Source of the DNA: a virus
Length of the DNA: 62,125 bases
Virus record (IMG/VR): IMGVR_UViG_3300023174_000172
Coordinates: 1 to 62,125 of that record
Direction: 5' to 3' (one strand)
Shown here one piece after another: positions 8,537 through 53,591 of this stretch. A program made the translations under genes and the position numbers. The first letter of the stretch is position 1, and every line of letters begins with the position of its first letter. The notes beneath the pieces were generated by a model. It was not told the origin of the DNA, searched no databases, and was given only the letters and a program-made list of their open reading frames with translations.

Positions 8537-9289
8537 ATGAGAGTAAGATTAAAAATAAATAAAGGTCTTAGCATTGGATTAGGTCCAAATTTTAAAATTT
8601 CCACTGATTTTGGTGTAATTAATCCTATTTATGCAACAAAAGAACAATTATTAAATGGAATAGAGGTAACCTTATCGGAATATGATGCTAGTAAGATAAA
8701 AATAACATCTATCGGCAATTGTACTAATTTTTTGGAGGTTGATATATCTAAAGATCCTACTTACGCTATAACTGCTACCCCTACACCAGTTCCTACATCT
8801 ACACCAACTCAAACACTCACCAATACACCTACACTAACTCCCAGCCCAACACCTACTAATACCCCTACACTAACACCAACCAATACTTCTACTCTTACAC
8901 CAACAGGAACTCTGACAAACACTCCTACTAATACTCCTACTAATACACCCACAAGAACTCCTACTAATACACCCACAAGAACTCCTACAATAACGCCAAC
9001 GCCTACAAATAATTTAATTAATATAACAATTACATCATTTGGAAATTGTTCTTATAAAGAAGATATTTATTATGAATCTACATATGATTTAAATTTATAT
9101 CCAAATATAATAGATTATTTAAATTTTTGGAATGGTGTATGGCACTGGGCTTCAACACCACCATTAAATGAAAGTACTTGTCCAGAAATAATTTATATGG
9201 TTGCTACTAATTCTATAGGACAAACTGTATATAGTACAGATTATAGCACATGGGGACCATTAGAACAAGATTGTCCTCCCTGCGTTTAA
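8537..9289 (+). CDS. Virion-type protein with Thr-Pro linker
   Basis: 250 residues in three parts: a small beta-rich N-terminal domain (1-80) with ITSIGNCTNF, a Thr-Pro-rich tract (81-158), and a C-terminal domain (159-250). The C-terminal domain repeats the ITSFGNCSYK motif of the N-terminal one, so the two ends may be related modules around the linker. Cys pairs occur in both (NCTN; CPEI, DCPPC). No signal peptide or membrane segment is seen. The late-type box and the shared linker suggest a decoration or fibre-associated protein. The exact role is unknown. Confidence 0.7.
   Translation: MRVRLKINKGLSIGLGPNFKISTDFGVINPIYATKEQLLNGIEVTLSEYDASKIKITSIGNCTNFLEVDISKDPTYAITATPTPVPTSTPTQTLTNTPTLTPSPTPTNTPTLTPTNTSTLTPTGTLTNTPTNTPTNTPTRTPTNTPTRTPTITPTPTNNLINITITSFGNCSYKEDIYYESTYDLNLYPNIIDYLNFWNGVWHWASTPPLNESTCPEIIYMVATNSIGQTVYSTDYSTWGPLEQDCPPCV
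8777..9010 (+). repeat. Thr-Pro tract 1 (mucin-like linker, hexanucleotide-type repeat)
   Basis: Codes 78 residues of [11 protein letters not shown] repeats with intermixed S, L, I and N. The DNA is a degenerate ACNCCN-type repeat with local identical copies such as ACTCCTACTAATACACCC. Confidence 0.95.
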
Positions 9290-9293
9290 TATA

Positions 9294-9584
9294 TTAATTT
9301 TTTAATTTAAAATAAATCTTGTATAAAAAACAAGCAAATAAATGCACAACCAATCCGCAAAAAGGATAAGAATAATTTCCCAATATATTAAAAAGTGGAT
9401 TATAAAATAAACTTGTTAATATACCCACCCAAAAACTACTACATTCTGGACACAAAAATGGTTTTCTTATATATGGAATTCTGGCAATAAAATTTCTAAC
9501 CGGAGCAAATATATCTGAAAAGCTCCACATAAAACTAACACTCAAACTTAATATAATATAGGTTAAAAGATAAAAAAGGATCAT
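9294..9584 (-). CDS. Small membrane protein, DUF1360-like
   Basis: 96 residues. Hydrophobic segments lie at about residues 3-20, 50-70 and 72-90. The central motif FLCPECSSFWVGI resembles the CxxC-xxFWxG signature of DUF1360-type phage/bacterial membrane proteins. The start overlaps the stop of the next gene upstream (9581-10027) by four bases, so they are co-translated. It ends 4 bases from the convergent Thr-Pro gene. Function is unknown. Confidence 0.65.
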   Translation of the reverse strand: MILFYLLTYIILSLSVSFMWSFSDIFAPVRNFIARIPYIRKPFLCPECSSFWVGILTSLFYNPLFNILGNYSYPFCGLVVHLFACFLYKIYFKLKN

Positions 9585-10027
9585 AGGAAAAATACATTTA
9601 CGTATTCGCTATCGATAGGAGAAACCGAAAATGCTCTATAAGCGGCTCGTTTTTGTGCTAAACCATCAGAAAATTCTTGCCATTCTGATATTTTAACCTT
9701 TTCGACCTTACCATGATATATAACAAACTTATATCTGTTCTCAATTTCGTCTAAAACTATATTATATTTGTTATCTCGTAGGAAATCATTTAAAAATACC
9801 GAAGATTTTTCTCTATTAGTATTAACATAATTTTCTACTTTACTTCTACAACTACAATTAGGATTAGTAGAAGCAGATTCAATATCAGCATAAATTTCGG
9901 GTGCTACTGCTTGGAATCTGGATTTGAATTCAGGTTTTAGTGACAACAATTCTAAAAATATTTTAGATAAAAATTCATAAGATTGTTCAATTTTTGTTAC
10001 GCTTTGTACATTTTCTTCGATAATCAT
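9581..10027 (-). CDS. Hypothetical protein
   Basis: 148 residues, soluble and mostly helical at the N-terminus, with one CSCR motif near the middle and a beta-rich C-terminal third. I do not recognise a family. A late-type box lies just upstream. It is the first gene of a two-gene unit with the small membrane protein. Confidence 0.65.
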   Translation of the reverse strand: MIIEENVQSVTKIEQSYEFLSKIFLELLSLKPEFKSRFQAVAPEIYADIESASTNPNCSCRSKVENYVNTNREKSSVFLNDFLRDNKYNIVLDEIENRYKFVIYHGKVEKVKISEWQEFSDGLAQKRAAYRAFSVSPIDSEYVNVFFL

Positions 10028-10037
10028 AGTATGTATA

Positions 10038-10048
10038 ACTTATTTATT
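10038..10048 (-). promoter_or_regulatory. Late-promoter-like box, AATAAATAAGT (minus strand)
   Basis: Ends 10 bases before the ATG at 10027; lies over the end of the GT25-like gene. Confidence 0.35.
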
Positions 10049-10747
10049 ATTATTAATAGGTTTGTCCATCATTTTTAACCAAAAATCATCACACATTCCA
10101 CCATAAGGAATTTCACCTATATCATTGTCAATTCCACATCTTTGTGAAACGCATAACGGATATGCTAAATATTTTTCTTTAAATGTATTTGATAAATAAA
10201 TGTCAAAAGCATATTGTGTTTCATATTCAGCTATAATTTTTTCAAAAATAGTATTTCTGATTAAAACGGCATGTGTTCCTATAGATTCGGATATTTTTAC
10301 TAAATTTTTTCCATACATAATAAATTCAGTTTGATTTTCACCCGGATTTGTCCCAAGAAAAAATAATTCCCAGTTTTCTATTTTATTTAAATCGATCAAA
10401 GCGTTTTCTATATATATCAAAGGATCATATCCACCATCATAATAAAATTTAGCATCGTCTTCAAAAATAAGAACATTATTTAAATTTTGTTCTTTTGCCT
10501 TTTTTATAATCTCAATATGAGAGTATAAACATGCTCTCGAATAACCTTCATGTGGATATTTACCACTCGGTTTTAAACTATATCCTAGATCTAAAGGAGT
10601 TAAAGCACTTTTTCTTTTTATATATTTTATTATATCAATATCTGTAAAATGTTTATATATAATGTTATTTTTGTCTGTTCTATAATCTAGATTTATATAA
10701 TAAGCATCGTCTATAAAGTTAAATAATTTTTCATTCATATTTTTCAT
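10040..10747 (-). CDS. Glycosyltransferase family 25-like protein
   Basis: 235 residues. The N-terminus has DDAYYINLDYRTDK, the usual (Y/F)-INL-x-R start of GT25 enzymes. YSRACLYSHIEIIKKA corresponds to the family motif GxxGCxLSHxxxxxxA, and VLIFEDDAKF is the conserved EDD metal-binding segment. GT25 enzymes add galactose or glucose to LPS or to protein (collagen hydroxylysine) acceptors. The start overlaps the stop of the GT4-like gene by four bases, so it is the last gene of the glycosylation operon. Confidence 0.82.
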   Translation of the reverse strand: MKNMNEKLFNFIDDAYYINLDYRTDKNNIIYKHFTDIDIIKYIKRKSALTPLDLGYSLKPSGKYPHEGYSRACLYSHIEIIKKAKEQNLNNVLIFEDDAKFYYDGGYDPLIYIENALIDLNKIENWELFFLGTNPGENQTEFIMYGKNLVKISESIGTHAVLIRNTIFEKIIAEYETQYAFDIYLSNTFKEKYLAYPLCVSQRCGIDNDIGEIPYGGMCDDFWLKMMDKPINNNK

Positions 10748-11919
10748 AATTTATTTAAAAAATCTATCCACATATTACCAACTTTTTTAATATTGAAAGC
10801 ATCTAAGATGTATTTTTTACCATTTTCTCTTATATTATTTTTAATATCAGGATTATATTCTAAATAATTGATACTATTTAATATGTATTCAATATTATTT
10901 TTAAATTTACCGTCTAAATCTTTTGTTAAGGATTCTTTTTGAAGCTTTTCTTGTTCAATACCATCAGGAAATTGAATCCATTGACAATATCCATCAAAAT
11001 TTTCGGGTAATGCTCCTAATGGATAGGTAATAGGTATAGCACCAAGAGCAATGGCTTCGGCTACAACACAAGAAAATGTATCCTTGTGAACATCTTGATA
11101 AGGTGTATAAAGAGGATATAAGAAATATTCACTTTCGGCTAAATGTCGGAACAATGTTTTTTTATCTACTCCATCATGACGATAAAAATAAGGATGTTGA
11201 TGATCATGTATGGTAATCAAATAATCAAAAGCATGAAATTCTTTGTCTGGAAAATTTAATTTCTCGACAGCATCTATTGCAACATTACCACCTCTAGCCC
11301 AAGAAGCATGAAAAATAAATTTATGAGGTTTTCTTTGTATATTTTCAGATAATACTTCTTCGACTACATCATCACATATTGGATTAGGAATTAAAGTTGA
11401 TTTAGTATTCTCATATCGATTAATTGTTGATTCTATTAACCCAATATTCATGGATTTTTCCCATTCAGAAATGTTCACAAACCCCAAACTTAGATTATTT
11501 GCTTTAGCATAGTTAACAGTCTCATCGATACCATATATCCATTGCATATGACACCAATAAATTAAACTTTTTGTTACTTTAATAGGCAATTTATCATAAT
11601 CCTGAAACCATAGACTGTTAACAAGAACATCAAATTCTTTATTATCAATATGATTAAATTCTATATCCGTATATTGAACACCTCGGATAGTGTCACCTTT
11701 AGGAAAAAACTTTCCTTCTCTTGCATATGACTCTTCAAGCAAAGGTTCCATTTTTTCAGTAACAACAACTACATCATGACCCTGTGTGGCTAGATATTCG
11801 GCTACTAGAATAGTGCTTGTATCGGTTCCAGAGCCTCCTCCACCGCCATATCTTAATGTTTCACCATTAAGATAGTTACTCCTTCTACTATTACCTATTA
11901 AAATAAAGGCTATTCTCAT
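10744..11919 (-). CDS. Glycosyltransferase, GT4-like (GT-B fold)
   Basis: 391 residues. The N-terminal domain starts MRIAFILIGNSRR with a glycine-rich GGGGGSGTD acceptor-loop and YLATQGHDVVVVTE, typical of GT-B enzymes. The C-terminal domain has DTFSCVVAEAIALGAIPITY, the E-x7-E type nucleotide-sugar motif of GT4 enzymes. Length is normal for the family. No signal or membrane segment is seen, so it should act in the cytoplasm. Its start overlaps the GT60-like stop and its stop overlaps the GT25-like start. Confidence 0.82.
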   Translation of the reverse strand: MRIAFILIGNSRRSNYLNGETLRYGGGGGSGTDTSTILVAEYLATQGHDVVVVTEKMEPLLEESYAREGKFFPKGDTIRGVQYTDIEFNHIDNKEFDVLVNSLWFQDYDKLPIKVTKSLIYWCHMQWIYGIDETVNYAKANNLSLGFVNISEWEKSMNIGLIESTINRYENTKSTLIPNPICDDVVEEVLSENIQRKPHKFIFHASWARGGNVAIDAVEKLNFPDKEFHAFDYLITIHDHQHPYFYRHDGVDKKTLFRHLAESEYFLYPLYTPYQDVHKDTFSCVVAEAIALGAIPITYPLGALPENFDGYCQWIQFPDGIEQEKLQKESLTKDLDGKFKNNIEYILNSINYLEYNPDIKNNIRENGKKYILDAFNIKKVGNMWIDFLNKL

Positions 11920-13184
11920 ACATTAATATCTTTTTCGTATCTTTCTCCCCACTGTTTATCTTTATCAAATAAATACATTACAATTTTAGATGGTTTGTCT
12001 ATCGAATAAAAACTAGCATTGTATTTATTATTTTTTAGAGTTACGTATTCTTTACCGTTTTCCAATGTAAAATCATGTCTAAAAACTTCAGCACCCGAAC
12101 TATTTTGAAGTCCAAATGTCATAAATTGGGGATCTTCGAAATTGTGCTTTTTGAAAAATTCTAAATCCCATTCACAATCTACAACATATTTGTGTGAAAT
12201 AAATTGATCTTCCCAATCTGATGGATTAGGAGGAGTTTTAACCTTTAATGTATAGTCTTGGATTCTGCATTTCTTAAAATCAAATCCACCATAAACCTCA
12301 TAATCATGTAAGGTTCTAACTGTACCCAAACCATATTTTCCCATATCTAAACTATGTTCTTCTTGTTCGAATAATTGTCGGGTTTTATTTCTTGCAAAGA
12401 CATCTCTCTCACCGCTTGTCTTTTTTGTTTTTATATAACCTACTGATGTTTCTGTGCCATGGTCTTCCCAGTGCTTAGGTCTTCCTTCTCTTGTATATTC
12501 GTGCCATATGTATTGACGATACGGGCTATAGAAATCATAACCGCTAGTAAATGCTCTAACACTTAAAGTAGTTTCTTCGGTATATCCACCAAAATAAATA
12601 TCAGGATCATACGGAACATCATTCACAAAAGAACCATCAGCCAAGAAAAAGTGACCGCTGATTGTTCGTGCCTTGATAACACAATCTCTTTCTTTGTAGT
12701 CCATGATATGATATGGGCGGCTCATTAACAATTTATCACTACTAAATTCATATTGACTCATCAAACACGGACATTCTTCATATTTTTCTTGTCGAGGTTC
12801 GAAAGGTGTTAAATATGTTGTCAATACAGGCTTATCACTAAACTTTTTAGCTTGATAAAAGTCTTCAAGCATCATAGTATCCCAACCTTTTAAAAATCTA
12901 TGATGACTGTCCAACTGCAAAACTAATTCTTCGCCATCATATAACTCATTTGTAATAGCCCTAGCCCATCCCAACCCTTGGCTTTCATCATAATGATGTT
13001 TTCTTATTCTAAAATTAGGTTTATTATCATATCTGGTTATATCTTCTGATTCATCATATTGCCAACATATACCGAAACTAAATAAATCGGGATTATCAGC
13101 TTTTTCCAACATATCATCAATCGTTACAGGCAATTGCGGATCACGATAAGAAGCGAGTTCTACAAAAATTTTTGGTTTATTCAT
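11916..13184 (-). CDS. GlcNAc-transferase-like protein, GT60 family (Pfam GlcNAc type)
   Basis: 422 residues. The opening IFVELASYRDPQLPVTIDDML, FGICWQYDE, GWARAITNELYDGEE and the DxH-type metal motif QLDSHHRF (D92-S-H94) with a following WD match the GT60-type polypeptide GlcNAc-transferase family. The residue pattern FFLADGSFVNDVPYDPDIYF and EETTLSVRAFTSGYDFYSP is also typical. Characterised relatives add GlcNAc to hydroxyproline (Skp1) or to Thr of trypanosome mucins. About 110 C-terminal residues form an extra beta-rich domain. Four-base overlaps join it to the mutase and GT4 genes. The acceptor here is not shown by sequence. Confidence 0.8.
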   Translation of the reverse strand: MNKPKIFVELASYRDPQLPVTIDDMLEKADNPDLFSFGICWQYDESEDITRYDNKPNFRIRKHHYDESQGLGWARAITNELYDGEELVLQLDSHHRFLKGWDTMMLEDFYQAKKFSDKPVLTTYLTPFEPRQEKYEECPCLMSQYEFSSDKLLMSRPYHIMDYKERDCVIKARTISGHFFLADGSFVNDVPYDPDIYFGGYTEETTLSVRAFTSGYDFYSPYRQYIWHEYTREGRPKHWEDHGTETSVGYIKTKKTSGERDVFARNKTRQLFEQEEHSLDMGKYGLGTVRTLHDYEVYGGFDFKKCRIQDYTLKVKTPPNPSDWEDQFISHKYVVDCEWDLEFFKKHNFEDPQFMTFGLQNSSGAEVFRHDFTLENGKEYVTLKNNKYNASFYSIDKPSKIVMYLFDKDKQWGERYEKDINV

Positions 13185-14170
13185 ATATTTTTAAGTTTTA
13201 TCATCGATTGTTTTACAGACATCCACATATCAAGATATGTATATGTTGCTAAACGTCCTATAAACAATGTATCCTTTAAACTTTCGGCTAAATTCTTATA
13301 TTTATTATAAATATTTGGACCTTCACCAAAAGGTATCGGATAAAACGGTATATCGTTTTTAGTACATTGTTTTGGATATTCTTCAGTAATTATCGTAGAC
13401 CCTTTATGATTCAAGTTAAAATAACTATGATCGTATGTTCTAGTATATTCAACATTTTTTGTATTTTGATTTATAATATTGACCGGAAGTTTCATATTCG
13501 ACGTTTTATGTTTGAATAATAAAGATCTATAAGGAAGTTCGCCAAAAGAATAATCAAAAAACTCGTCAATTTTTCCTGTATATATTGTTAAATCTGTTTT
13601 ATAACCTTCCCAATCTTTATTTTCACATCCTAAATTGATAGAAAACCCATTTAACATATTTTCCATCATTTTAGTGTAACCTTCTTTTGGTAAACATTGA
13701 TATTTTTCTCCCTCATACCAAGTAGGATCATCACAATCTTTGGTTTTAGGTATTCTATTAGTAATTGATTTAGGAATTTGCTCAAAAGGTACGCCCCATT
13801 GTTTTTCTGAATAATCTTTAAATATATATTGTATGATTTCCTCTTGTGATAACTCTCTACCGATTTCCTTTATAGTTTTTTTGCTATAGGGTAAAGAAAT
13901 TAAACCCAATTCGGTATTACCAAGTGGTTTATTTTTAAAATCAAACCATTCCGTATATCTATTTAAGAAATGAAAAACATCGTCATCGTTTGTATGAAAC
14001 ATATGAGGTCCATATTTGTGTACCAGTGTTCCATTAATATTTTGATCGAAACAATTACCACCTATATGATCACGTTTATCAAAAATTTCTATATTATAAC
14101 CTTTTTCCTTCAATAATATAGCCGATGTTATACCGGACAACCCACAACCTATAATTTTAGCGGTTTTCAT
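13181..14170 (-). CDS. glf: UDP-galactopyranose mutase
   Basis: 329 residues, somewhat shorter than bacterial Glf (about 370-390). The FAD-binding Rossmann motif IIGCGLSGITSA is at the N-terminus, then EIFDKRDHIGGNCFD and HKYGPHMFHT, both hallmark segments. WYEGEKYQCLPKEGYTKM and the C-terminal FIGRLATYTYLDM, with its conserved Arg, are the substrate-binding region. It converts UDP-Galp to UDP-Galf, the donor for galactofuranosylation. It is joined by 4-base overlaps to the small-terminase gene upstream and the GT60-like gene downstream, so a Galf-transferase is expected among the three neighbours. Confidence 0.93.
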   Translation of the reverse strand: MKTAKIIGCGLSGITSAILLKEKGYNIEIFDKRDHIGGNCFDQNINGTLVHKYGPHMFHTNDDDVFHFLNRYTEWFDFKNKPLGNTELGLISLPYSKKTIKEIGRELSQEEIIQYIFKDYSEKQWGVPFEQIPKSITNRIPKTKDCDDPTWYEGEKYQCLPKEGYTKMMENMLNGFSINLGCENKDWEGYKTDLTIYTGKIDEFFDYSFGELPYRSLLFKHKTSNMKLPVNIINQNTKNVEYTRTYDHSYFNLNHKGSTIITEEYPKQCTKNDIPFYPIPFGEGPNIYNKYKNLAESLKDTLFIGRLATYTYLDMWMSVKQSMIKLKNI

Positions 14171-14673
14171 TCCTCTTCTATAATATCAGAGTTTTCTATT
14201 AATTCTATTTTTTTGGGTTTGTTTTTTAAAAGTTGCATAGCCTCGTCTCTAGAACCTATAAAAATGTTATTGGTTTGTTGACCAGCAGTAGAACCCAACA
14301 AAGGATTATGTTTTCCTTTCACTGCTTCTGCCTCTATACGTTTAACTTCTATATTATTTTTAGCTTGCTTTTGCTGTATATTAATTTTATTTAAATTTTC
14401 TATACCTTTAAATGCAGTATTCATTAATTGAGCATATGCTGAAATTTCTTTAGGATCAGCAGCAGTTTGAATCAATTGCTGCATATCTTTAATAGCACTC
14501 ATGGTCAATTCTAGCATTTCGGCTGATTTTTGATATATGTAATCGCTTACAGTGTCATCTGTTATTTGCGGTGTGTTTATAACTTGTTTTTTTTGAGTAC
14601 TGTTGTTAGAATTATCCTTTAATTCTGATATGATGTCATTAATATCAGAATCATCTATTGAATTGTTATCCAT
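14167..14673 (-). CDS. 16: Terminase small subunit, T4 gp16-like
   Basis: 168 residues (T4 gp16 is 164). A disordered acidic N-terminus leads to a long helical core (about 45-105) with a TAADPKEISAYAQLM segment. A Gly/Asn-rich stretch NNIFIGSRDEAMQLL and an acidic tail follow. This helix, LM, NxxxFxGS, acidic-tail order parallels T4 gp16 as I recall it (ADSPRHMEVFATLM, ATVFMGSPTELM). It would bind DNA and regulate the packaging motor; the large subunit is not in this window. It is the first gene of the operon with the mutase and glycosyltransferases. Confidence 0.7.
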   Translation of the reverse strand: MDNNSIDDSDINDIISELKDNSNNSTQKKQVINTPQITDDTVSDYIYQKSAEMLELTMSAIKDMQQLIQTAADPKEISAYAQLMNTAFKGIENLNKINIQQKQAKNNIEVKRIEAEAVKGKHNPLLGSTAGQQTNNIFIGSRDEAMQLLKNKPKKIELIENSDIIEEE

Positions 14674-18742: not shown

Positions 18743-21700
18743 ATGAGTAGAATAATTACAAATTTAACATTTTCAGATGTTTTAAACTATAATTCAGCGG
18801 AATTTGTAACAAACACCGATATAGGAAATGTAATAGAAAATTATAATAGAATCAATAATATTGGTAACTATGCTTATTTTTGGGGGTCGACAAAAAAATT
18901 TGTAACAATTACTTCAATAGATTCAGATCCAAACGTATTAGGATCTTTTAGATCATACACATATGGTTATTCTTATGGTGGTAATGATTGGATAGTCAGA
19001 AAAAACAATACAACAAATACATGGACTCTTATTGCTTACATGTATGGCGGAACTAAACAAAACGAAAATATAGCATTTAGTAATACAACATTAAATTCAT
19101 TGGTATGGGGGGATTGTTTTACTTTTAATTGGGAAAATGTTTTATTAGAAGATGAATTATATAAAATAAATTCAAATATAATTTTAGTGCCACAAAGAAC
19201 ATGTGTCAGTGGCACATTAACTCCCACACCAACCTCTACTAATACACCAACACCCACTCCAACAAGAACACTCATTAGTACCCCCACCACAACCCCCACC
19301 AATACTCCTACAAGAACATCTACACCCACAATAGCACCAACTGCTACTAATACACCAACACCCACACCAACAAGAACACCCACTAATACCCCAACACCGA
19401 CTAATACATCTACTCCAACACCTACACCAACGTTTAATTTTAATTTGTCTGTAAATAAAATTTCTGGGTTTGAAAAGGCAACAGAGTTTAAATTTAATAT
19501 TAGCCCAAATTATTTAAGCAGAATACAAAATATTAAATGGATATTTGATGATGGGACTACACAAGATCAATTATTGGAAGTAAATCATAAATATTCTTTT
19601 AGCGGAACATACAATCCAACCGTATTAGTTTTTACAGAAACCGAGATATTATCAGCATCGGTAGAAATAAATGTTTCTCATTATACAAATGAAGTATTAT
19701 ATTTTGATCAAGTTCCTCCATCAACATGGTCAGGCTATTATTCTCCAAAATACCCATTCAGAATTCATATAGCTTCTAAAGATATGGGACCGCATTACAT
19801 AGATTTGGCAGCAATGTATTCAAATTCCAAAAGATATCAAGAAAATCCCTCAAAATGGGGATTTTTAAAACCAGAATGGAGGTTTCTAGATTTAGATGGA
19901 AATGTCATACAAAGTATAAAAACCGAAGATACATTAATACGAATAGATGATGATGGAAACTTAGATCCTAATGGTATAGTTGTCGGTGTAACCGGAAAAG
20001 CAGAATTTTTCTTTGTTGATGATTTATATAATTTTAATAATTTTTTAAATAAAACTCCTATTACTACAATTATTGCAACTCTTCAAACTAGTGCGATATC
20101 CGTAAAATCTGACTACGAGTTAACCAATGCCGTAGTACCCGGTTACGCGAACAGTCTAGCATATGACTGCATACCATATATATCTTTTTTACCGATACCC
20201 GACAGTTTAAAATTAACCGAAAACGCTGTTAACGATTTTACTAACCCAAAATGGATCGATGCTAACATTCCTATATTTATAAATATAGAAGATAAAAAAG
20301 ATTATTTTGATTTTTGTTTAGATTCCGAATATCAATTAACAAATGTACCAAATAAAACATATTTTAATAAAAATTATCCCATAGAAAAACCAGAAGATCC
20401 TTTATTTGTTAATATCAATAATAAAACATTAACATTTACACCGTCTTCTTTAAATTTTCATATTAAAGATGCTGATGATTTTTACGATGCTGGTTATTAT
20501 CGAGGATTTTTTAAAATTGATACCGAAGAAGATTTTACATCAACAATAGCAGCTACTTCACAAATCACATTACCATCAAATTTTAAAGTTTTTTATAATA
20601 ACCCTTATATATGGGTATCTAATCCAACTGCCGGAACCATATCGAAACTTGTATACACCGGAGAACTAAGCCCATGTAAAAAATCTACAAATTTTTTACA
20701 AATACAAACATACGAAGTACCTATATTAAAAGATGAAAATTTAGATGTTACTCCTAATATGTATCTTTCGGGATTTCATGGTGTTGATTATTTTGCAATA
20801 TTACCCTTTCCGTATTGTCAATCATGGGTTTTAGATTCAGAATTAAATAGTATTTATGCTATTTCTAACACAGATGGTAAAATTTTAAAAACAATTGATG
20901 TTAATAAAATAGTAAAAGACCAAGATCTTGGGTTTTTGATAGATTTTCAAACTACACCATCTTCTATTGTTTTAAACAGCAAAAAAGATTTTTGGGTAAC
21001 TTTATACGACACTGTTTCTACATTAAAATTCGATAAATATGGTAACTATTTGTTTGCGATTCATCCATTAAATTTTACGGGTTATGAAAATTTACCATCA
21101 AATTATTTATTTAAACTTAGACAGGCATTTAGCGGTTTACCTGATCAAAATTTAATAGAACCAACAGTTGTTGATGTTGATATAGAAGATAATATTTGGA
21201 TAACATATTCAAATCCATTGAGTAGTTTCATTATTAAATACGATACAGATGGAAATTTATTAAAATGTATTGATTTTCCGGCTTTTTCATCACCACAGGA
21301 AATTATTTGCGATTCTACTGGAAATTTTTGGGTTAAAGGCGTTGAAACAAGAAGCGGTGATTTTAATAATAGTCTTTCCGCGACATTTATAGAAAAAAGA
21401 AATTCTGATGGAGTATTGCTTAGTTCATATAGAAATCTTCATAATGTCACCCATCTAACATTAGATCAATATCAAAATTTATGGTATTTACACGATTTTA
21501 ATGGACTGGGAAAAATTGAAAACATTAATGGAAATAACACTAGAATTTGGTTAAATTACGATTATCAAAACTTAGAATATCCTTATAATGCAAAAGAATG
21601 GCACGATGCATCAAGAAAAAACGCAGATTATACAATATTTGACGGTATAGCCGTAGATATTAGAGATTATGTATATGTTTTGAATTCTTTGGAAAATTAT

Positions 21701-27446: not shown

Positions 27447-30400
27447 ATGGCAAATGGTTATATCCAAGAAATTAAAACGTATGGTGTATCAGATGAATTA
27501 GAGATTTTCATATCCTCTTATTTTAAAAAGATAGACGAATACATTTTTTTTGAATTTGGGTATGTTGATAATGATTTTAATGATAATCTAAAAACTATTT
27601 TTTTAGATTTTGGCGATGATATAACTCAAACTGTTGATATCGACGAACGAATTTATCATAAATACGAAAATGCAGGAACATATACTATAACCTACAGCGC
27701 ATTATATGAAAGTGGAAAAACTACCGATCTATTATATTTAAACAAACCCATTCAAATTTTTACAGAATGGCCGTCATATAATCAAGACGATATCCGTTTA
27801 TTGGACGAAACTGAATTAAAATTACCTTATACCCTAGATCAAATAGAAATTCAACCAAATGAATTCGGAAATGTTGATATTTTTAATACAGCTATATCAA
27901 GATTATTTGATAATTTACAATATTTAATTTATAATTCTAGGACACTTAAAATAGATTTTCCTTATGATGTATACGGCTGGCTCGGTACACATCCGATAGA
28001 AAAAACAGTCGGGGTTCAATGGCACACACAAAATTTTAATTCGGACTATTATAATATACAGGATTCGCTTACAAATTTAAGTTTTTCTATAAATAATAGA
28101 AGTTTATTTCAAAATAACCAATTTAAATTAAATCATTTTTATAATATTAAAGACGTTATAGAAAAAAAAGAAGATTTAATAGTTTTAGATGGTAATACAT
28201 TATTTTATTTGTCAGCCGGAAAAATACCAACACCTATAAATTTTGTAAATAGCACCGAATTTTATACAGATTTTAAAAATATAGTTTCTATAGATATAGA
28301 TGATACCGGAAAATATATTTTTGCCGCTGATGACGTTACGAATAGGGTATATAAAATATATCTAGATATTTCTAAAGGGTTATCTTATATTTATAATGTT
28401 ATAGATGTTGGAGGATTTGGTTATAAAAATGACATTTCTAAATTCGACTCACCATCACAATTAAAATATTATAATAAAAATGTTTTTGTTTTAGATTATA
28501 ATAATAAATGTATTAAAAAATACAATGAATATTTGGTTTGGATTAAAACATACACATATGGGTTTTTAGACACTGTAGATTGGTTGAGTTTTGATATACA
28601 TCCAACAACAGGATTGATATATCTAATAACATCGGATAATAAAATTTATGTTTTAGACGAAACTTTTTATGATTTTGTTTACAGTATAGATTTATCTAAC
28701 ATATTAGAATATGGTGATAAAAAGCTAGTTTTTGACGAAGGCGGTGAGTTTTTTTATATTTTAGTCGCAAATAAAATTGTTTATAAATTTACAGCAACAG
28801 GTATATTTTTAAATTCTTTTGAAAATGATTATATTTTTACAAATATTAAAAAATCCGAAAATAGATCTTTGTTTTTAACATCTAATAATTTTATTTTAAA
28901 ATTTACTGATATTGTAAAATATTATGGAATAGGCGAAGGATTACAAAAATCATATTGGTCAAAAAATGAATTATTGTTGGAATCTGATGAATTTGCATCA
29001 GAATTAAATTATAATAGATCATTATTAAGAATATGTCAAAATATCAAAAAATTTAGAGATTATCTGGATTCTAAATTTATAATAGCAACAGAATTTTCGA
29101 GAGGAAATTTAATAACATTTTATACAAAACAACCGATATCAATAAATGATAGACCGCAATTTGAAATAGATATAGAACTTGAAAAAATTAAAATTGGTTC
29201 TAATGAATTGCATATACCTCAAACATTTAATAGAGAATTAAAAAAACTTTATAATGCATTAGACACTATAAATAATTTTTTAAGCATAAAAACCGAAGAT
29301 GTTGTTAGAATACAAAGAGAAACTTGCGATAGTCCTTTTTGTTGGTCATGGAAAGCAATGTCTTCTTACAATTTAACTCTTCCGGCTATTAAAGTTTGTA
29401 ATATAAACCCAATAACATATAAAGAATTAAAATCAAATTTTCCGGTTGCATATGCTCCAACAAAAAACTGGAATTCTGCTACATCTAAATGTTGTCAAGG
29501 AAAAGCAGATAATATTAATGCTGTAATTTCTGAAAATACTATAATAGTTCCAGCCCCAACATTTTTACCAACAATTAGACCAACAAATACACCTACACCT
29601 ACACCTACAGTTACTCCTACATTTACACCAAGCCCAACACCAACATTCACCCTAACACCAACATCAACTCCTACAGGAACACCAACAAACACACCTACAA
29701 TTACACCAACACCAACTCCTACAAAAACTCCCACCCCTACAGGAACACCAACTCCCACAGGAACACCAACAAACACACCAACAAACACACCAACAAACAC
29801 ACCTACTAGAACACCTACTAGAACACCTACTAGAACTCCAACCAATACACCAACTAGTACACCGTTACCACCCACATCTACTCCTACACCAACGTCAACA
29901 TTGACCCGAACACCAGTCCCAACCGAAACACCAACACCAACACCTACACCTACTAATACACTAACACCAACACCAACAAACACACCGACCAATACTCCAA
30001 CACGTACTCCAACACCAACACCTACTAATACACCGATACCAAGAGTTTCTTTTCAATCTGATTACAGTAATAATGCTACGTTTGTGGTTCCTGCTGGGTG
30101 TAATTCTATCAATGCTTTAATAATTGCTGGCGGCGGTGGCGGCGGAACAGGGCAAGAAGTTGGAGATGGCGGTGGCGGTGGCGGCGGAGGATCTGGCGGT
30201 TATACTAATGTGACCATTTCCGTAACACCCGGTCAAAGTATTGGCGTAATAGTTGGTTCTGGTGGAGCTGGAGGTCAAACGTCAGGAAGAGGAAGTAAAC
30301 ATAATGGAGATACTGGTGGATTTTCTCAAGTCGGTGGATCAAGAGTTAACGGAGGATTTGGTGGACAGGCTGGAAATAGTGGAAACGGTGGCTCTGGCGG

Positions 30401-30665
30401 CAACGGCGGAAGTCCCAATGGAGGATCAGGGTCAAGAGGAAGCAGTGGAAGTAAAGATACCTCTAGCGGCAACGGCGGCAACGGCGGTGGAAACCCATAC
30501 GGATCAGGCGGCGGCGGTGGAAACAAAGGAACTGGCAGCAACGGTAACGGTCATGGCGGCGGTGGAGGTGGAGCAGGTTTCAATGATCGATCCAAACCAC
30601 TTGGTTGGTCTGGTGGAAACGGCGCAAAAGGTTTTGTTAGAATAACCGGATCAAAATATAGATAA
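27447..30665 (+). CDS. Tail adhesin: PKD-like, beta-propeller, Thr-Pro linker, Gly-rich tip
   Basis: 1072 residues. The N-terminal PKD-like domain (about 40-95) has [10 protein letters not shown] and [16 protein letters not shown] beta-propeller-like region (about 240-500) has [16 protein letters not shown] and [16 protein letters not shown]. Residues about 510-700 end with a Cys-containing CDSPFCWSW segment. Then come the longest Thr-Pro tract (about 710-865) and a Gly-rich C-terminal module (about 870-1072). That module opens [20 protein letters not shown] and is full of GGGGG runs. Such Gly-rich tips occur in phage adhesins and could form a polyglycine-II packed receptor-binding domain. 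It is paralogous to both Gly-rich modules of the 37642-40554 product. Confidence 0.8.
29575..30040 (+). repeat. Thr-Pro tract 3 (longest)
   Basis: About 155 residues of [13 protein letters not shown] and RTPTRTPT. Near-identical 12-base units (ACACCAACAAAC, ACACCTACTAGA) occur three times in succession, a sign of recent slippage or recombination. Confidence 0.95.
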
Positions 30666-35084: not shown

Positions 35085-35690
35085 ATGATTAATGAAACAT
35101 TAATAGATATCAATAATGCTACATATGGACAAATTTTTGATTTTGTTTCACCATTAACATTAAATTTTTGTATATCTGGCTATATACCAACAAAAAAAAT
35201 ATGGAAGGTTGTATATGATTTCGGTGACGGTAACACAAAAACCCAAATATTAAATAATGCTACAGAATTTTTAAATTTAACAGCTTTACCGTATCAAAAC
35301 GAACCGGGTGATCCAAGAAACTATATAATAAAAAATCATTATTATTTTGAAGATGTAACAAATAAAATATATAACGTAAAAATTGATTTTTATAGAATAG
35401 GAGAAGAATTGCCACAAATTCTTAAATTTGATTTAAATTTAAGATTACCTATTTACAATTCTGCCGATTTACCATTAAAAAATTTTAAATTGGTAGGCAC
35501 TCGAATGTTTGGTATAGATAATAGAATGATTTATTTATTCGAAAGTCAAAAATATAACCATTTAATACCAGTATTGTTGGATTTCAATATTAAAAATACT
35601 CCCACCCCCACCCCCACTCCTACTCCTACTCCTACCCCTACACCAACTAGAATATATTCACATACATTTACACCAACGCCAACCCCGTAG
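35085..35690 (+). CDS. Tail-associated protein ending in a bare Thr-Pro tract (possibly truncated)
   Basis: 201 residues. An N-terminal domain of about 170 residues has a PKD-like strand pattern (KVVYDFGDGNTKTQI with NHYYFEDVT). It then runs into a Thr-Pro tract that ends in TFTPTPTP and a TAG. Every other Thr-Pro tract here is followed by a C-terminal domain or tail, so this gene may have lost one. The DNA of the tract is a short pure ACTCCTACTCCT-type repeat. It follows the fibre gene by 18 bases and ends 3 bases from the convergent gene 35694-36149. Confidence 0.7.
   Translation: MINETLIDINNATYGQIFDFVSPLTLNFCISGYIPTKKIWKVVYDFGDGNTKTQILNNATEFLNLTALPYQNEPGDPRNYIIKNHYYFEDVTNKIYNVKIDFYRIGEELPQILKFDLNLRLPIYNSADLPLKNFKLVGTRMFGIDNRMIYLFESQKYNHLIPVLLDFNIKNTPTPTPTPTPTPTPTPTRIYSHTFTPTPTP
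35596..35687 (+). repeat. Thr-Pro tract 4 (simple repeat)
   Basis: About 30 residues. Contains the purest hexanucleotide run of the window, CCCACCCCCACTCCTACTCC, followed by RIYSHTF and a last TPTPTP. Confidence 0.93.
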
Positions 35691-37641: not shown

Positions 37642-40554
37642 TTAAACATAATATTTAATTCTTATCATACCAGATCCACCATTGCCACCAACTTTTCCAT
37701 TATTAGTGGCATTTGTTCCTATTCCTGTTGTAGTATCGGTTATAGTTCTAGAACAAGCATCAGCGGTCCATTTTATTCTATATATACCCCAAACATAATA
37801 AGGATAGTAAGAGGTGCCTGGTGTAGTGCATCTAGTTACCGAACATCTCGCTCCACCAAAGTCTAAACCGCCACAATCATTATTCCCCTCACCACACAAA
37901 CCAGCCCATTTTCTTCTATTGTAACTTGATTCAGCTGATAAATCATAAGAATTACCATTCCAAGGTTTAGTAGTACCAACAAGGTCTTCCGATGCATAAT
38001 ACCAAGAATCGTGACCTTTTTTCCCACAGTTTGATAAACAATTTAAATTAAAATCTAAAATATTTTTAGATATGTTATTTTCCACCCATTTATCATTTTC
38101 TTTACAAATTCTACAAACATAACCAGTAGCTTGTTTTTCTTTGCTTTCCGCATAACAAGCATATTTTTCCACTCTCGAATTATTAATACTATAAGTTCCA
38201 GCCCAAGCAGATCCACCACCACCGCCCGTATTTGCTCCAGCACTAATACCATTGGAATTTTCGGTTTTAGCACCAGAACCACCACCAGTTCCAGCATTTC
38301 CATTTTTTCCCCCACCACTACCAGATTTTATTTCAGATATTAAAAATAATGGAGGCTGTATACCATTAACACCGTTAATATTTATATTTCCACCAGAAGA
38401 TCCATTGCCGTAATTACCGATACCACCAATACCACCAATACCGTTTACTATACCGCCCTTTCCGCCAGTAGCTTTTAAGGTTCCAAAATAACTATCTCCG
38501 CCATCTGTACCGTTTGTAACATAATCACTCGTTCCACCAGTTCCGACAATAACAGATATATTTTGACCCGAAGAAACAGTATAATTTTTTTCATAACTAA
38601 TACCTCCACCACCTCCACCACCACCGATCTGACCAGCACCACCACCACCACCAGCGATTACGGCAACTTCTACGGATTTAACATTATTAGGAACCGTCCA
38701 ATTAGTAGTACCAGATTTAGTAAAATCAACAATAACTTCTCTTGGTGTGGGTGTAGGGGTTACGGTAGGAGTTGATGTAGGTGTTGCAGTAGGAGTAGGG
38801 CTTGGGGTTGGTGTTAATGTGGGAGTATTAGTCGGCGTTCTAGTAGGAGTTGGACTAGGTGTAGGAGTTAAAGTTGGAGTATTAGTTGGTGTGGGAGTAA
38901 GTGTTGCGGTCGGTGTACTTGTTGGTGTATATGTAGGTACAGGTGTTTTAGTTGCAGTAGAAGTAGGAGTTGGTGTTAGTGTAGGAGTATTAGTCGGTGT
39001 TCTTGTCGGTGTTCTTGTCGGCGTATTAGTTGGTGTATTGGTTGGTGTAAGTGTAGGTGTATTTGTTGGGGTCGGTGTGATTGTAGGTGTATTGGTCGGA
39101 GTTGGTGTTGGTGTTTTAGTTGGAACCAACGGTAAAGATGGTTCAACATAATTAAAAGGTTCACCGCAAATATTATTTTTTAAAACCCATTGATTGTTTA
39201 TTTTTTTAAATTTAAATGTGCATCCTTTAGATATAAAAACATCTTTTTTAATATAATGGGAAATCCATTGTTCCATTATAGGCCAAATAACATAACTAGG
39301 TAATAGAGTGGGAGTCGGTGTAGGGGTTGTTGTTGGTATTGGGGTAGAAGTAGGTCTTAGTGTTGTTGTGGGAGTAGGCGTAGGAGTACTAGTTGGTGTA
39401 ATATTAGAAACACCAGTTGGAGTAGGAGTACTTGTAGAAGTAGGTGTAGAAGTTGGTGCAATAGTAGGTCTTAAAGTATATGTTGGCGTAGGAGTGGGTG
39501 TAGATGTAGGGGTCGGGGTAGAAGTAAAAGTAGGAGTAGGCGTTATCGTGGGTGTTCCGGTTGGCGTAGGAGTGGGTGTAGATGTAGGCGGAAGCGATTC
39601 ATTATAAATTATTACAACTATACCAGAACCACCATTACCGGAACTAGCATTAACTGTTATTGCTGGTGTTATTAATGCGGGTGTTATATTTCTTGTACAT
39701 GTTTTTGCTTGTGTATATGAACAATCATAAGAAACTGTTTTAGACCAATCATATTCCTTACATCCACCGCCCTTACCAGAAGCACAACCTTTTTTAGTTT
39801 TACCATTTTTTTTATTAACACCCGAAGGACAATTATTTTTACAGTCAAATGTATATCCCCAACAATCGTCTATACATTTACCAGTTTCTTCTTTATTACA
39901 CGTTTTATGTACTTTATAAGAACAATCATAATTTTCGGTAGAAGGACCATAAACAGCAGCAGTAAAACTACCATTACCCGCGCCACCACCACCACCAGTA
40001 TTATTTAAACCGCCCGAACCATCAATTGTTAAACCCAATAATCCAGCAGCAGGAGGAACACCACCACCATTTCCTCCCCCACCACTTCCACCCAAAGAAC
40101 GACTTCCGCCACCACCACCAGAACAATTTAATACAATTTTTTCTAAAAGTCCGGTTATATTATAACCATTATTACCAACCTTTAAATAATCACCGCCAGC
40201 ACTTCCATTTCTATAATTTCCGATTCCACCTAAACCACCACTTCCGACCAATTTTCCACCCTTACCGCCAGTAGATATTAATGTTCCGAATTTGCTGGAT
40301 TCTCCGTCATTGCCATCAGCACCACTAGCTATACCAGAATTACCACCATTACCAACAATCACCGAAATAATTTGACCAGATGTAACAGGATATGCTTTTT
40401 GATAAGATATACCACCACCTCCACCCCCGCCACCTTGACGACCAGAAGCACCACCACCCCCAGCAACAACAATTACATCAACAGAAGTTACATTAGCCGG
40501 AACACTCCAATTTATTGTTCCCACATTTTTAAATTCTATTGTTTGTATTGCCAT
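37642..40554 (-). CDS. Double Gly-rich adhesin with Cys-rich inserts and two Thr-Pro linkers
   Basis: 970 residues. Gly-rich module 1 (1-320) opens [20 protein letters not shown]. Thr-Pro tract (about 321-416), small domain (416-476), second tract (477-604) and Gly-rich module 2 (604-970, [20 protein letters not shown]) follow. The modules share SGQxISVIVGxGG, GTLxxTGGKGG and GGIGNYxNGSxGG. Each has a divergent Cys-rich insertion (about 208-281 and 798-941) before the closing GGSGxxxIxY strand. The architecture is of a tail adhesin with two receptor-binding tips and variable loops. A TATAAATA box precedes it. Confidence 0.82.
38743..39125 (-). repeat. Thr-Pro tract 5 (second linker of the double Gly-rich adhesin)
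   Basis: About 127 residues, including two copies of [18 protein letters not shown]-like units. Confidence 0.95.
39307..39592 (-). repeat. Thr-Pro tract 6 (first linker of the double Gly-rich adhesin)
   Basis: About 95 residues of STPTPT, TLRPT and GTPT-type repeats, interrupted by GVSNI. Confidence 0.95.
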
Positions 40555-40584: not shown

Positions 40585-41403
40585 TTACAATATTATATAA
40601 TCATCATCAGGATCACTATCATCAATTCCTAATATTCCATCATTTATATCTTCTTCCATAGCCAAAGCAACAATTGGTGTAGGTGTTATGGTTGGTGTAT
40701 TTGTCGGTGTTGGTGTTGGTGTATTTGTCGGTGTTGGTGTTGGTGTATTTGTCGGTGTTGGTGTTGGAGAGCCAGTAGGCGTTGGTGATGGTGTTGGAGA
40801 GCCAGTAGGCGTTGGTGATGGTGTTATTGTCGGTGTATTTGTTGGTGTAGGAGTACCTGTAGGTGTTGATGTAGGAGTAGGAGTCGGTGTTATATTAGGA
40901 TCAGGATTTCCGTCTGCTCTCCATGCTACGTTTATAAAATCTGATGTAGAATTATATAATAAAAATTGTACATTAATAACATCTCCTTCATTATAGTTTT
41001 CAACCGAAAAATTTTTATTTAAATAATTTCGAGCTGTTTCTATTAATGCATTATTGTCAACAGTTTTTAAATAAAAATCCTTAATATTATTATAAGAATC
41101 TGATAAAAAATTTATAGGATATTGAACCGTAATCTCGGTCTTATCCCAATAAGAACTTAATATATTTGTTGCGGTATAACATCTTTGATATTCATCAGGA
41201 TCATCAAAAACATTTATAGAATCCAAAACGTTTAAAAACTTCGATGAGAATGCTAAAAAATTTGTGAATAAACTATTATTTCCTTCAAAATATTTATTTA
41301 TTAAATTACAAGTTTGAATATCAAGATTTGAAAAATTATAATTTAATTTTCCAAGAGAATTTCCAACAGAATCATCTTCATATATGTTATGGCTATATAT
41401 CAT
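40585..41403 (-). CDS. Structural paralogue A with Thr-Pro tract and acidic tail
   Basis: 272 residues. The N-terminal domain (1-170) has [19 protein letters not shown], a middle [14 protein letters not shown], and a late ...[12 protein letters not shown] segment. These are shared in order with the next two genes upstream. A Thr-Pro tract (170-243) and a very acidic tail ([20 protein letters not shown]) follow. The ATG overlaps the TAA of the gene upstream (TAATG). It is likely a tail-fibre-network or baseplate-periphery protein; no known family was recognised. Confidence 0.7.
40674..40893 (-). repeat. Thr-Pro tract 7
   Basis: About 73 residues. Contains three copies of an 18-21 base unit coding NTPTPT and two exact copies of the [10 protein letters not shown]-type unit. 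Confidence 0.95.
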
Positions 41404-52649: not shown

Positions 52650-53591
52650 TTATACAACATTTATCGTAACACATGTATATTGGGTATTAATGACTCCACC
52701 ATAACATTCCATATATGATATTATAATAAATTTATATATTCCTTTTGTTTTTATCGACCCATTAAGATTTCCACTAGATTCTAACCCTTTATCATTATTC
52801 GTATAAATTAAACCAAAAGGAACACTAAATGGTATAGAAGATTGTGTTAAACATTGACCATATTGTAACTTTATTGATGTATTAAAATATACACCAGCAT
52901 GAGTAGTAATAGTAACAGGATTTACAACAGTTTTTCCTTTAACAACATGCGGCGGTTTATTGTTACAATTATAATATCTGTTGATAGTTGGTTTAACCGG
53001 AGATGTCCTTGTAGGAGTAGGTGTTAAATTTCTTGTAGCTGTAGGAGTTGTTGTTATTGATGTTGTCGGAGTAGGAGTAGGTGTTCGGGTGGGAGTTGTT
53101 GTAGGTGTTATAGTAGGAGTAGATGTTGGTGTATTGGTAGGTAAAGGAGTGTTTGTAGGAATATGTGTCGGAGTTATCGTAGGAGTAGATGTAGGAGTAG
53201 ATGTAGGTGTTCTTGTAGAAGTAGGTGTAGGAGTAACGGTCGGAGTTCTTGTGGGAGTAGAAGTGGGGGTAGAAGTCGGAGTTTGAACTATTATATCATT
53301 AAAATATATTAATGCACTTCCACCAGAAAAACTGCAATCCTCATATGTTTTGATTAAATTTTCACAATTACAGGATTCATCCAAATTAGAAAGACTTTCG
53401 GGTACATTATAAGAGGGTTGATTATTAGAAGTAGTGCTTATACTATCATTTATACTGTCACTGCTATACAATAAACTTCTAAAAAAAGAAATATCACATA
53501 ATAATGGATTTTCCACATTAACAGGAAAATTGCCAGTTATATTGTTCTTGCTAAATGAATATGTTTTTAAAAGTTTTATTTGATCTGGCAT
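52650..53591 (-). CDS. Virion-type protein with Thr-Pro linker
   Basis: 313 residues. The N-terminal domain (1-101) includes a CNCEN Cys pair, SCN and DCSFSG. The Thr-Pro tract (about 102-195) joins it to a beta-rich C-terminal domain (about 196-313) with [20 protein letters not shown] and [17 protein letters not shown], which looks like an Ig- or Calx-type domain. It is the first gene of the minus-strand tail block, with a TATAAATA box 2 bases upstream. It is likely a decoration or fibre-linked protein. Confidence 0.72.
53006..53286 (-). repeat. Thr-Pro tract 8
   Basis: About 94 residues of [12 protein letters not shown] and NTP repeats; ends in [15 protein letters not shown]. Confidence 0.95.

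What the first reader, a model, noticed from the sequence alone, without database searches (positions are those of the whole stretch)
9294..14673. Candidate phage-encoded mucin-type glycosylation of Thr-Pro virion linkers
Seen: a GT60-like polypeptide GlcNAc-transferase homologue (DxH motif LDSHHRF), UDP-galactopyranose mutase, a GT4-like and a GT25-like enzyme are in one operon. The window also holds eight Thr-Pro-rich tracts in seven structural proteins. Known: characterised GT60 enzymes start O-GlcNAc on Thr in trypanosome mucins or on hydroxyproline, and some trypanosome mucin glycans carry Galf. Inference: the cassette may glycosylate the tracts, making mucin-like stalks that resist proteases, extend adhesins or mimic surface glycans. 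The operon starts at a late-type gene (small terminase), so the enzymes would be made with the virion proteins. That favours virion targets over host-surface or DNA modification, but does not exclude them.
Basis: partly seen in the sequence, partly recalled or inferred. Interest (0 to 1): 0.88.

Follow-up and report, generated by a model that had tools for sequence, protein, structure and literature searches.

The report
Phage sugar-coating kit for Thr-Pro stalks
A T4-like environmental phage carries a set of sugar-transfer enzymes, led by one built like the enzymes that start mucin glycosylation in animals, and comparative genomics suggests that their target is the long threonine-proline stalks in the phage's own proteins.

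Summary
One minus-strand operon encodes a GT60-family enzyme (PF11397), UDP-galactopyranose mutase, a GT4-like and a GT25-like enzyme. Eight Thr-Pro tracts lie in seven proteins (94 pattern matches, 0.00 expected). 'Structural' is only partly shown.

Of viral records of at least 50 kb, 23 of 26 with GT60 carry the tract pattern, against 1 of 11 capsid relatives without GT60. In reverse, 13 of 40 records chosen by tract hold GT60; controls 0 of 50. Sister record G048 lacks the cassette, and four of four comparable orthologues lack the tract. The GT60 model's best 29 structural matches are polypeptide GalNAc-transferases. XacN1, an isolate with a GT60 homologue and reported virion glycoproteins (PMC5852040), has many such tracts. 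Bacterial GT60 loci are enriched too.

Most likely GT60 puts HexNAc on Thr of the tracts and partner enzymes extend it; UGM is optional. Sugar, residue and benefit are unproven, and evolutionary independence is thin.

The parts
11916..13184 (-). GT60-family (PF11397) glycosyltransferase, proposed initiator of O-glycosylation of the tracts
   Evidence: PF11397 E 5e-60; DSHHRF invariant in 26 of 26 aligned sequences; model nearest to polypeptide GalNAc-transferases, Z 20.8
13181..14170 (-). UDP-galactopyranose mutase (would make UDP-Galf); short form lacking about 30 residues present in most aligned relatives
   Evidence: PF03275 E 1e-51; alignment A3; profile A3 matches solved UGMs
10744..11919 (-). 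GT4-like GT-B glycosyltransferase, proposed chain extender
   Evidence: no Pfam match; phrog_2170 weak; model pLDDT 91, GT-B fold matches MshA, WaaG, PglA; beside GT60 in most relatives
10040..10747 (-). GT25-like glycosyltransferase, proposed outer-sugar enzyme; a FkbM methyltransferase stands in its place in L002
   Evidence: PF01755 E 1e-6; profile A4 nearest solved structure procollagen galactosyltransferase 1, E 4e-8; L002
14167..14673 (-). first gene of the operon; weakly a terminase small subunit
   Evidence: phrog_735 E 0.0022; 4 of 10 homologues hit phrog_445; next to the HNH gene, without the cassette, in G048
9581..10027 (-). cassette ORF of unknown function
   Evidence: no family match at 1e-3; homologue only in L002 among the 128 loci then held
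9294..9584 (-). cassette ORF of unknown function, hydrophobic, with a CPEC motif (read by eye)
   Evidence: no family match at 1e-3; homologue only in L002 among the 128 loci then held
8756..9016 (+). Thr-Pro tract (residues 74-160) of ORF 8537-9289
19196..19450 (+). Thr-Pro tract (residues 152-236) of ORF 18743-22732; this and the N-terminal part are absent from the G048 orthologue
29550..30053 (+). Thr-Pro tract (residues 702-869) of tail-fibre-like ORF 27447-30665; absent from the G048 orthologue
35580..35687 (+). C-terminal Thr-Pro tract (residues 166-201) of ORF 35085-35690; the G048 orthologue ends before it
39286..39609 (-). first Thr-Pro tract (residues 316-423) of tail-fibre-like ORF 37642-40554
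38731..39144 (-). second Thr-Pro tract (residues 471-608) of ORF 37642-40554
40663..40911 (-). Thr-Pro tract (residues 165-247) of ORF 40585-41403; absent from the G048 orthologue
52995..53297 (-). Thr-Pro tract (residues 99-199) of ORF 52650-53591

Best explanation
The cassette is a phage-encoded mucin-type O-glycosylation pathway whose main substrate is the phage's own Thr-Pro tracts. Outer-sugar genes differ between phages (GT25, GT11, FkbM methyltransferase, UGM), which would give changing glycan coats. Shown here: the enzyme families, the tracts, their association and the presence/absence pair. Inferred: that the tracts are the substrate, the sugar, the residue, the order of steps and the benefit.
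For: Forward survey: the tract pattern is in 35 of 47 GT60-selected viral records and 7 of 39 records picked by capsid protein; 2 of those 39 have GT60 and both have tracts. At least 50 kb: 23 of 26 GT60+ against 1 of 11 GT60-, 623 against 1 matches, Fisher p 8e-6. Reverse survey: GT60 in 13 of 40 tract-selected records, 0 of 25 random and 0 of 25 Lys-Pro-pattern controls, p 7e-6. Sister pair: G048 (capsid 87% identical) has no cassette between small-terminase-like and HNH genes, and its orthologues of 18743, 27447, 35085 and 40585 lack the tract. Adjacency: the ORF just upstream of GT60 is a tract ORF in 7 of 29 GT60 clusters against 15 of 462 other neighbours, p 3e-5. Fold: the top 29 rows are all polypeptide GalNAc-transferases, Z 20.8 to 16.8; next LARGE1, 15.2. 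XacN1: GT60 homologue ORF334, 51 tract matches with 0 control, at least two virion glycoproteins reported (PMC5852040). Bacteria: 9 of 50 GT60 loci hold the pattern against at most 2.35 expected from the same genomes, P 2e-4; control pattern 1 against 1.33. Family precedent: a trypanosome GT60 makes GlcNAc-alpha-Thr on mucins that also carry Galf (PMC9472816).
Against: No glycan has been observed here. 12 of 47 GT60+ records lack the pattern, three of them at least 50 kb (G010, G011, G037). 27 of 40 tract-selected records lack GT60. On the capsid tree only 3-4 independent GT60 differences exist; usually 2 or 3 of them go the predicted way and almost never one the other way, too few for significance. 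UGM is nearly absent from tract-selected records (2 of 40). In 22 of 29 clusters the upstream neighbour of GT60 is not a tract ORF. The GT4-like fold also matches phage T4 DNA alpha-glucosyltransferase (rank 24). XacN1's enzyme is only 31% identical and the text I read does not say which proteins are glycosylated.
Confidence: 0.7

Rival explanations
1. The cassette modifies the host surface (O-antigen or capsule) after infection, and the tracts are plain unmodified spacers; both are merely common in large environmental phages.
For: GT25 is named for LPS biosynthesis; phages can carry surface-modifying genes (recalled); bacterial GT60 genes are widespread. 27 of 40 tract-selected records lack GT60.
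Against: The association holds within a tree of Gp23-type phages and in records of at least 50 kb; 0 of 25 random contigs of at least 30 kb hold GT60; in the sister record cassette and tracts are both absent while the carrier proteins of four tracts remain; the GT60 fold is that of polypeptide transferases. The seven cassette ORFs have no family match to a flippase or polymerase at 1e-3.
Confidence: 0.13
2. The target is proline, after hydroxylation (a Skp1-like or plant-like hydroxyproline glycan), rather than threonine.
For: GT60 of Dictyostelium acts on hydroxyproline (recalled); tracts are Pro-rich; the 2OG-Fe(II) oxygenase family PF13640 occurs in 4 of 28 GT60+ records and 0 of 11 GT60- controls.
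Against: 24 of 28 GT60+ records lack PF13640, and the hits lie about 10 kb or more from GT60 (with the locus ranges); Thr outnumbers Pro in every tract. Host hydroxylases cannot be excluded.
Confidence: 0.07
3. The enzymes glycosylate modified phage DNA, as in T4.
For: The GT4-like model also matches T4 alpha-glucosyltransferase (rank 24); the phage is T4-like.
Against: The T4 enzyme is one of many GT-B matches; GT60 is not known to me as a DNA-glycosyltransferase family (recalled), and the association with tracts would be unexplained. The window is a single record and genes for modified pyrimidines were not surveyed.
Confidence: 0.05

Closest known systems
Trypanosoma cruzi TcOGNT (GT60) mucin O-glycosylation
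   Same: Same family; UDP-sugar:polypeptide transferase making GlcNAc-alpha-Thr on mucin-like proteins, with glycans that can carry Galf (PMC9472816, passages read)
   Different: Golgi enzyme of a protist; here an operon in a phage with tail-fibre-like targets, no secretory pathway, and Galf only optional
Polypeptide GalNAc-transferases (GT27), animal mucin-type O-glycosylation
   Same: Nearest solved fold; DxH in place of DxD and a shared clade with GT60 (PMC7185993, passages read)
   Different: 13-16% identity in the ten best rows; C-terminal part not matched there; different sequence family
Mycobacteriophage Che8/Rita virion glycosylation
   Same: Phages whose capsid proteins carry covalent glycans, with phage glycosyltransferases (PMC11256854, passages read; the primary paper, Freeman 2023, seen only as a citation)
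   Different: Capsid target; no Thr-Pro tracts or GT60 mentioned in what I read
Xanthomonas jumbo phage XacN1
   Same: GT60 homologue ORF334, many Thr-Pro tracts, glycoproteins reported in virions (PMC5852040, passages and section 13 read)
   Different: Remote (31% identity); annotated neighbours include a carbamoyl transferase and a GT9; the authors did not link enzyme and tracts in what I read

Membership tests
GT60 / PF11397 | Profile match over the curated cut-off | tested here: met
   204 bits against cut-off 21
GT60 / PF11397 | DxH metal-binding motif | tested here: met
   DSHHRF invariant in 26 of 26; DxH as a GT60/GT27 trait from PMC7185993
GT60 / PF11397 | GT-A fold akin to polypeptide transferases | tested here: met
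   Z 20.8, rmsd 3.5, 265 aligned to GalNAc-T2
GT60 / PF11397 | Retaining transfer of GlcNAc to a polypeptide hydroxyl | not testable with these tools
   needs an enzyme assay
UDP-galactopyranose mutase | Profile match and conserved active-site residues | tested here: met
   PF03275 over cut-off; KQW, first Arg of RLP, TR, YP and GRL..Y.Y.D positions invariant in 15 of 15 (their roles are recalled)
UDP-galactopyranose mutase | Complete length relative to relatives | tested here: inconclusive
   about 30 residues missing in window and L002 against 13 other aligned sequences; whether the segment is needed is unknown
GT4 | GT-B fold nearest to GT4 members | tested here: met
   (family labels of some rows recalled)
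GT4 | Match to a GT4 sequence family | tested here: inconclusive
   no Pfam match at 1e-3
GT25 | PF01755 over cut-off, acidic EDD motif | tested here: met
   28.8 bits against 24; E96-D97-D98 invariant in 10 of 10
Mucin-type PTS domain | Long Thr/Pro-rich repeats of variable length | tested here: met
   36-168 aa; 87 tract residues in window 8537-9289 against 170 in its L002 homologue
Mucin-type PTS domain | Dense O-glycosylation | not testable with these tools
   needs glycoproteomics
Terminase small subunit (14167-14673) | Profile match | tested here: inconclusive
   E 0.0022; 4 of 10 homologues hit phrog_445, best 1e-4

The most novel reading that the evidence does not exclude
GT60 enzymes across phages and many bacterial phyla form a general prokaryotic mucin-type O-glycosylation system in which Thr-Pro tracts are the dedicated substrate, so that 'tract plus GT60' travels as a substrate-enzyme module and tract presence can be predicted from the enzyme.
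Probability: 0.5. Interest if true: 0.9.

Novelty: new variant of a known kind. Interest (0 to 1): 0.8.

Why it matters
If true, a glycan type thought of as eukaryotic (polypeptide-initiated, mucin-like O-glycans on Pro/Thr-rich stalks) is made by phages on their own proteins and probably by bacteria. It would give a function to Thr-Pro tracts that are easily dismissed as low-complexity linkers, supply new polypeptide glycosyltransferases that work in bacterial cells, and add a virion surface trait that could affect adsorption and contact with proteases. The public XacN1 proteomics data make the first test cheap.

Tried and rejected
Hydroxyproline route as the general rule: PF13640 in only 4 of 28 GT60+ records, not beside GT60.

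UGM/Galf as the defining enzyme: 2 of 40 tract-selected records, one of them with GT60 (G091) and one without (G107).

DNA microsatellite slippage as the cause of the tracts: mixed synonymous codons.

Late timing by promoter: exact TATAAATA lies within 60 bases upstream of 5 of 45 ORFs (background 1.2%, p 2e-4), including tract genes 27447, 37642 and 52650, but not upstream of the cassette; over the whole window the motif is not enriched (30 against 27.8). The general promoter/terminator scan was uninformative for the cassette.

GT60+ records of at least 50 kb without the pattern: G037 has Thr/Ser-rich proteins with little Pro; G010 has weaker Ser/Thr-rich stretches and a Pro/Ala-rich one; G011 was not looked at.

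Other glycosyltransferases near tracts in GT60-negative records: of 50 ORFs scanned from loci of 11 such records, single hits to a GT2-like family, FkbM and PF13640 (25 of 30 families were shown); no common substitute.

Gene-order test in bacteria: 6 of 45 clusters have a tract neighbour against 21 of 475, p 0.014, with the GT60 ORF found in only 63 of 75 loci by my ORF caller.

PDB sequence search with the GT60 profile: no match at E 1. Viral fold library: GT60-like proteins in other phages and giant viruses.

Literature: the ten searches of the held open-access library listed no paper that I could see to join GT60 or Thr-Pro tracts with phages; (GT60 with phage) returned none. Listings were seen, not every paper read; the XacN1 paper does join phage glycosyltransferases with virion glycoproteins, without naming GT60 or tracts in what I read.

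Limits of the controls: the 39 capsid-selected records are 39 of 80 loci (short ones left out by me); GT60+ records were chosen by GT60, so they are not matched to the controls by capsid, and 22 of the 44 that I searched had a Gp23 match. The Lys-Pro controls are the 25 largest of about 35 of at least 30 kb, and I did not check that their matches lie in the Lys-Pro frame. One search found nothing anywhere, its control genomes included; the same family search did find GT60. The 50 bacterial genomes are 50 of 75 loci. Records are mostly fragments. Only 2 of 15 GT11-cluster members and 1 of 6 FkbM-cluster members were scanned. The window's tract count in the tree script (99) was a placeholder; the counted value is 94, with the same effect at both thresholds.


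Full report
What the window is. The window is the whole of a 62,125-base virus record, probably a genome fragment, since T4-like genomes are larger (recalled). PHROG matches show a T4-like structural region: head-tail adaptor, head closure, prohead protease, scaffold, major head protein and baseplate wedge proteins, with a clamp loader. The capsid protein is under 60% identical to all 2,488 matching phage records; the 15 rows listed, mostly cyanophages with one Xanthomonas phage and one marine virus, are at 32-35%. The host is unknown.

The cassette. ORFs 14167-14673, 13181-14170, 11916-13184, 10744-11919, 10040-10747, 9581-10027 and 9294-9584 run on the minus strand, 5 of 6 junctions with overlapping stop/start codons. 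Three have Pfam matches over the cut-off: GLF/UGM, GlcNAc (GT60) and GT25. The fourth enzyme has no Pfam match, but a confident model (pLDDT 91.3) with a GT-B fold whose matches include MshA, WaaG, PglA and HepE. The first gene is weakly a terminase small subunit. The UGM is a short form: about 30 residues present in 13 of the 15 aligned sequences are missing, while the positions I recall as active-site positions are kept.

The tracts. Eight Thr-Pro tracts lie in seven ORFs. They total 806 residues: 344 Thr, 221 Pro, then Ser, Asn, Leu, Ile and Arg; the commonest TPTxTP hexapeptides are TPTNTP and TPTPTP. The DNA pattern for TPTxTPT matches 94 times, against 0.00 in shuffles. All four codons of both residues are used, which points to selection on the protein. 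Two of the seven proteins have tail-fibre-type matches (27447-30665 and 37642-40554), and three have an exact T4-type late promoter word just upstream (27447, 37642, 52650).

Relatives of the cassette. A scan of viral contigs with the GT60 protein gave 47 loci. In 30 clusters at 90% identity, the homology group that holds the GT4- and GT25-like proteins occurs near GT60 in 28, UGM in 20, a group whose two scanned members are GT11-family in 15, and a group whose one scanned member is a FkbM methyltransferase in 6. In L002, whose GT60 is 92% identical, the FkbM gene stands where the window has its GT25 gene. The core therefore looks like GT60 plus a GT4-like enzyme, with variable outer enzymes. 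That is what one expects of a pathway with a fixed start and a changing end (inference).

Do GT60 and tracts go together? Forward: the tract pattern is in 35 of 47 GT60-selected records. Among 39 records chosen by capsid protein it is in 7; two of the 39 have GT60, and both are among the 7. The other five are one 211-kb record with a single match and four fragments of 11-43 kb; three of the four form a group with a GT60+ record, G034, on the capsid tree. Pooled, 37 of 49 GT60+ against 5 of 37 GT60- records, p 7e-9; at 50 kb or more, 23 of 26 against 1 of 11, p 8e-6. GT60 was found in 0 of 25 random records and 0 of 25 Lys-Pro-pattern records of at least 30 kb; p 7e-6 against both together, 1e-3 against random alone. 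UGM is in 2 of the 40.

How independent is this? On a capsid tree of 55 rows (window, 39 capsid-selected, 15 GT60-selected) GT60 changes at least 5 times. At three or more matches, 16 of 18 GT60+ and 4 of 37 GT60- rows have tracts (p 2e-8), and at 50 kb or more 13 of 15 against 0 of 11 (p 2e-5). Independent contrasts are only 3-4; on average 2.7-2.9 go the predicted way and 0.0 the other way, which cannot reach significance. The raw p-values therefore overstate the evidence, though the direction is steady.

A natural experiment. The nearest row without GT60 on that tree is G048 (capsid 87% identical, 58.9 kb). Between its small-terminase-like gene and its HNH gene there is no cassette, whereas the window has six genes and a tract gene there. 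Four of the window's tract proteins have orthologues in G048 and all four lack the tract: 35085-35690 is matched up to its tract, where the G048 protein ends; 40585-41403 is matched over residues 1-160, then the tract is missing; 27447-30665 is matched over 1-695, with tract and glycine-rich C-terminal domain missing; 18743-22732 is matched from residue 231 on, with N-terminal part and tract missing. Of the other three tract genes, 8537 has no counterpart, 37642 only a short matching stretch, and 52650 would lie beyond the contig end. So cassette and tracts were gained or lost together in this one pair, while the carrier proteins stayed.

Adjacency. In 7 of 29 GT60 clusters the ORF just upstream of GT60 is a tract ORF, in all 7 on the same strand; among other neighbours in the same loci it is 15 of 462 (p 3e-5). 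In several loci further tract ORFs follow UGM.

Fold. The GT60 model (pLDDT 82, with weak loops at 126-143, 246-249 and 315-317) was compared with solved structures. Foldseek's best rows are polypeptide GalNAc-transferases. In the VIA-align list the first 29 rows are all of that kind, Z 20.8 to 16.8, then LARGE1 at 15.2 and others at 15 and below. Residues 1-311 are covered; the C-terminal beta-rich part was barely tested. The 2020 GT-A survey places GT60 with GT27, both with DxH, and cites shared Ser/Thr O-glycosylation (PMC7185993, passages). A shared fold does not prove the acceptor.

An isolate. The only records of the phage collection with a match at 1e-5 are Xanthomonas phage XacN1 and Stenotrophomonas phages CM1 and RAS14 (31%). 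XacN1 has 51 and RAS14 22 pattern matches, with 0 of the reversed control in either; CM1 was not searched. In XacN1, 13 of the 18 ORFs I translated, most of them picked at match positions, contain TPTxTPT, among them a giant ORF384 read in part. The XacN1 paper names ORF334, the GT60 homologue, as one of two glycosyltransferases and reports at least two virion glycoproteins (PMC5852040; passages and section 13 read). The figure that would say which proteins are glycosylated is in a supplement I could not see.

Bacteria. A genome scan gave 75 bacterial GT60 loci whose record titles span many phyla. By one ORF measure, 23 of 75 contain a tract ORF, against 19 of 47 viral GT60 loci, 3 of 39 capsid loci of at least 10 kb and 3 of 66 random viral loci of at least 5 kb; these comparison loci are not bacterial, so the fair test is within genomes. 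In 50 of these genomes the whole-genome pattern count gives an upper bound of 2.35 loci expected to hold a match; 9 do (P 2e-4), while the reversed control gives 1 against 1.33. In Jiulongibacter sediminis all 5 matches of a 4.5-Mb genome lie in the ORF beside GT60. Some of these contigs may be phage DNA.

Verdict. The simplest account is that GT60 initiates O-glycosylation on Thr of the tracts and that its partners extend it. The rivals (host surface, hydroxyproline, DNA) explain less. Nothing here shows a sugar on a protein.

Noticed in passing
L564-L638: GT60 relatives occur in 75 bacterial loci of many phyla, and tract ORFs sit in 23 of them, in some right beside GT60 (L566, L570, L578, L630, L633).
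   Followed up: partly
window 1039-3132 and 7055-8500: Two related HNH homing endonuclease genes flank the capsid region; the second borders the cassette region and its homologue is the gene next to the empty site in G048.
   Followed up: partly
L002:12446-13171: A FkbM-type methyltransferase gene stands where the window has its GT25 gene in the closest relative, a sign of outer-sugar swapping.
   Followed up: partly
L041:14490-15392, L047:13075-13848: GT11-family genes; their homology group occurs in 15 of 30 GT60 clusters.
   Followed up: partly
window 35694-36149: ORF among tail genes with a PHROG match to a starvation-inducible transcriptional regulator (8e-11).
   Followed up: no
window 60339-61415: PHROG matches to DNA methyltransferases (best of these 3e-10).
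   Followed up: no
window 27447, 37642, 41403, 52650, 59509 starts: Exact TATAAATA (T4-type late promoter word, recalled) ends within 31 bases upstream of five ORFs; suggests T4-like late transcription in this group.
   Followed up: partly
fold library, Pandoravirus salinus and Megaviridae proteins: GT60-like folds also appear in giant viruses; whether these carry Thr-Pro tracts was not checked.
   Followed up: no
L041:17801-18559: A trypsin-family protease gene lies in the GT60 neighbourhood of L041.
   Followed up: no
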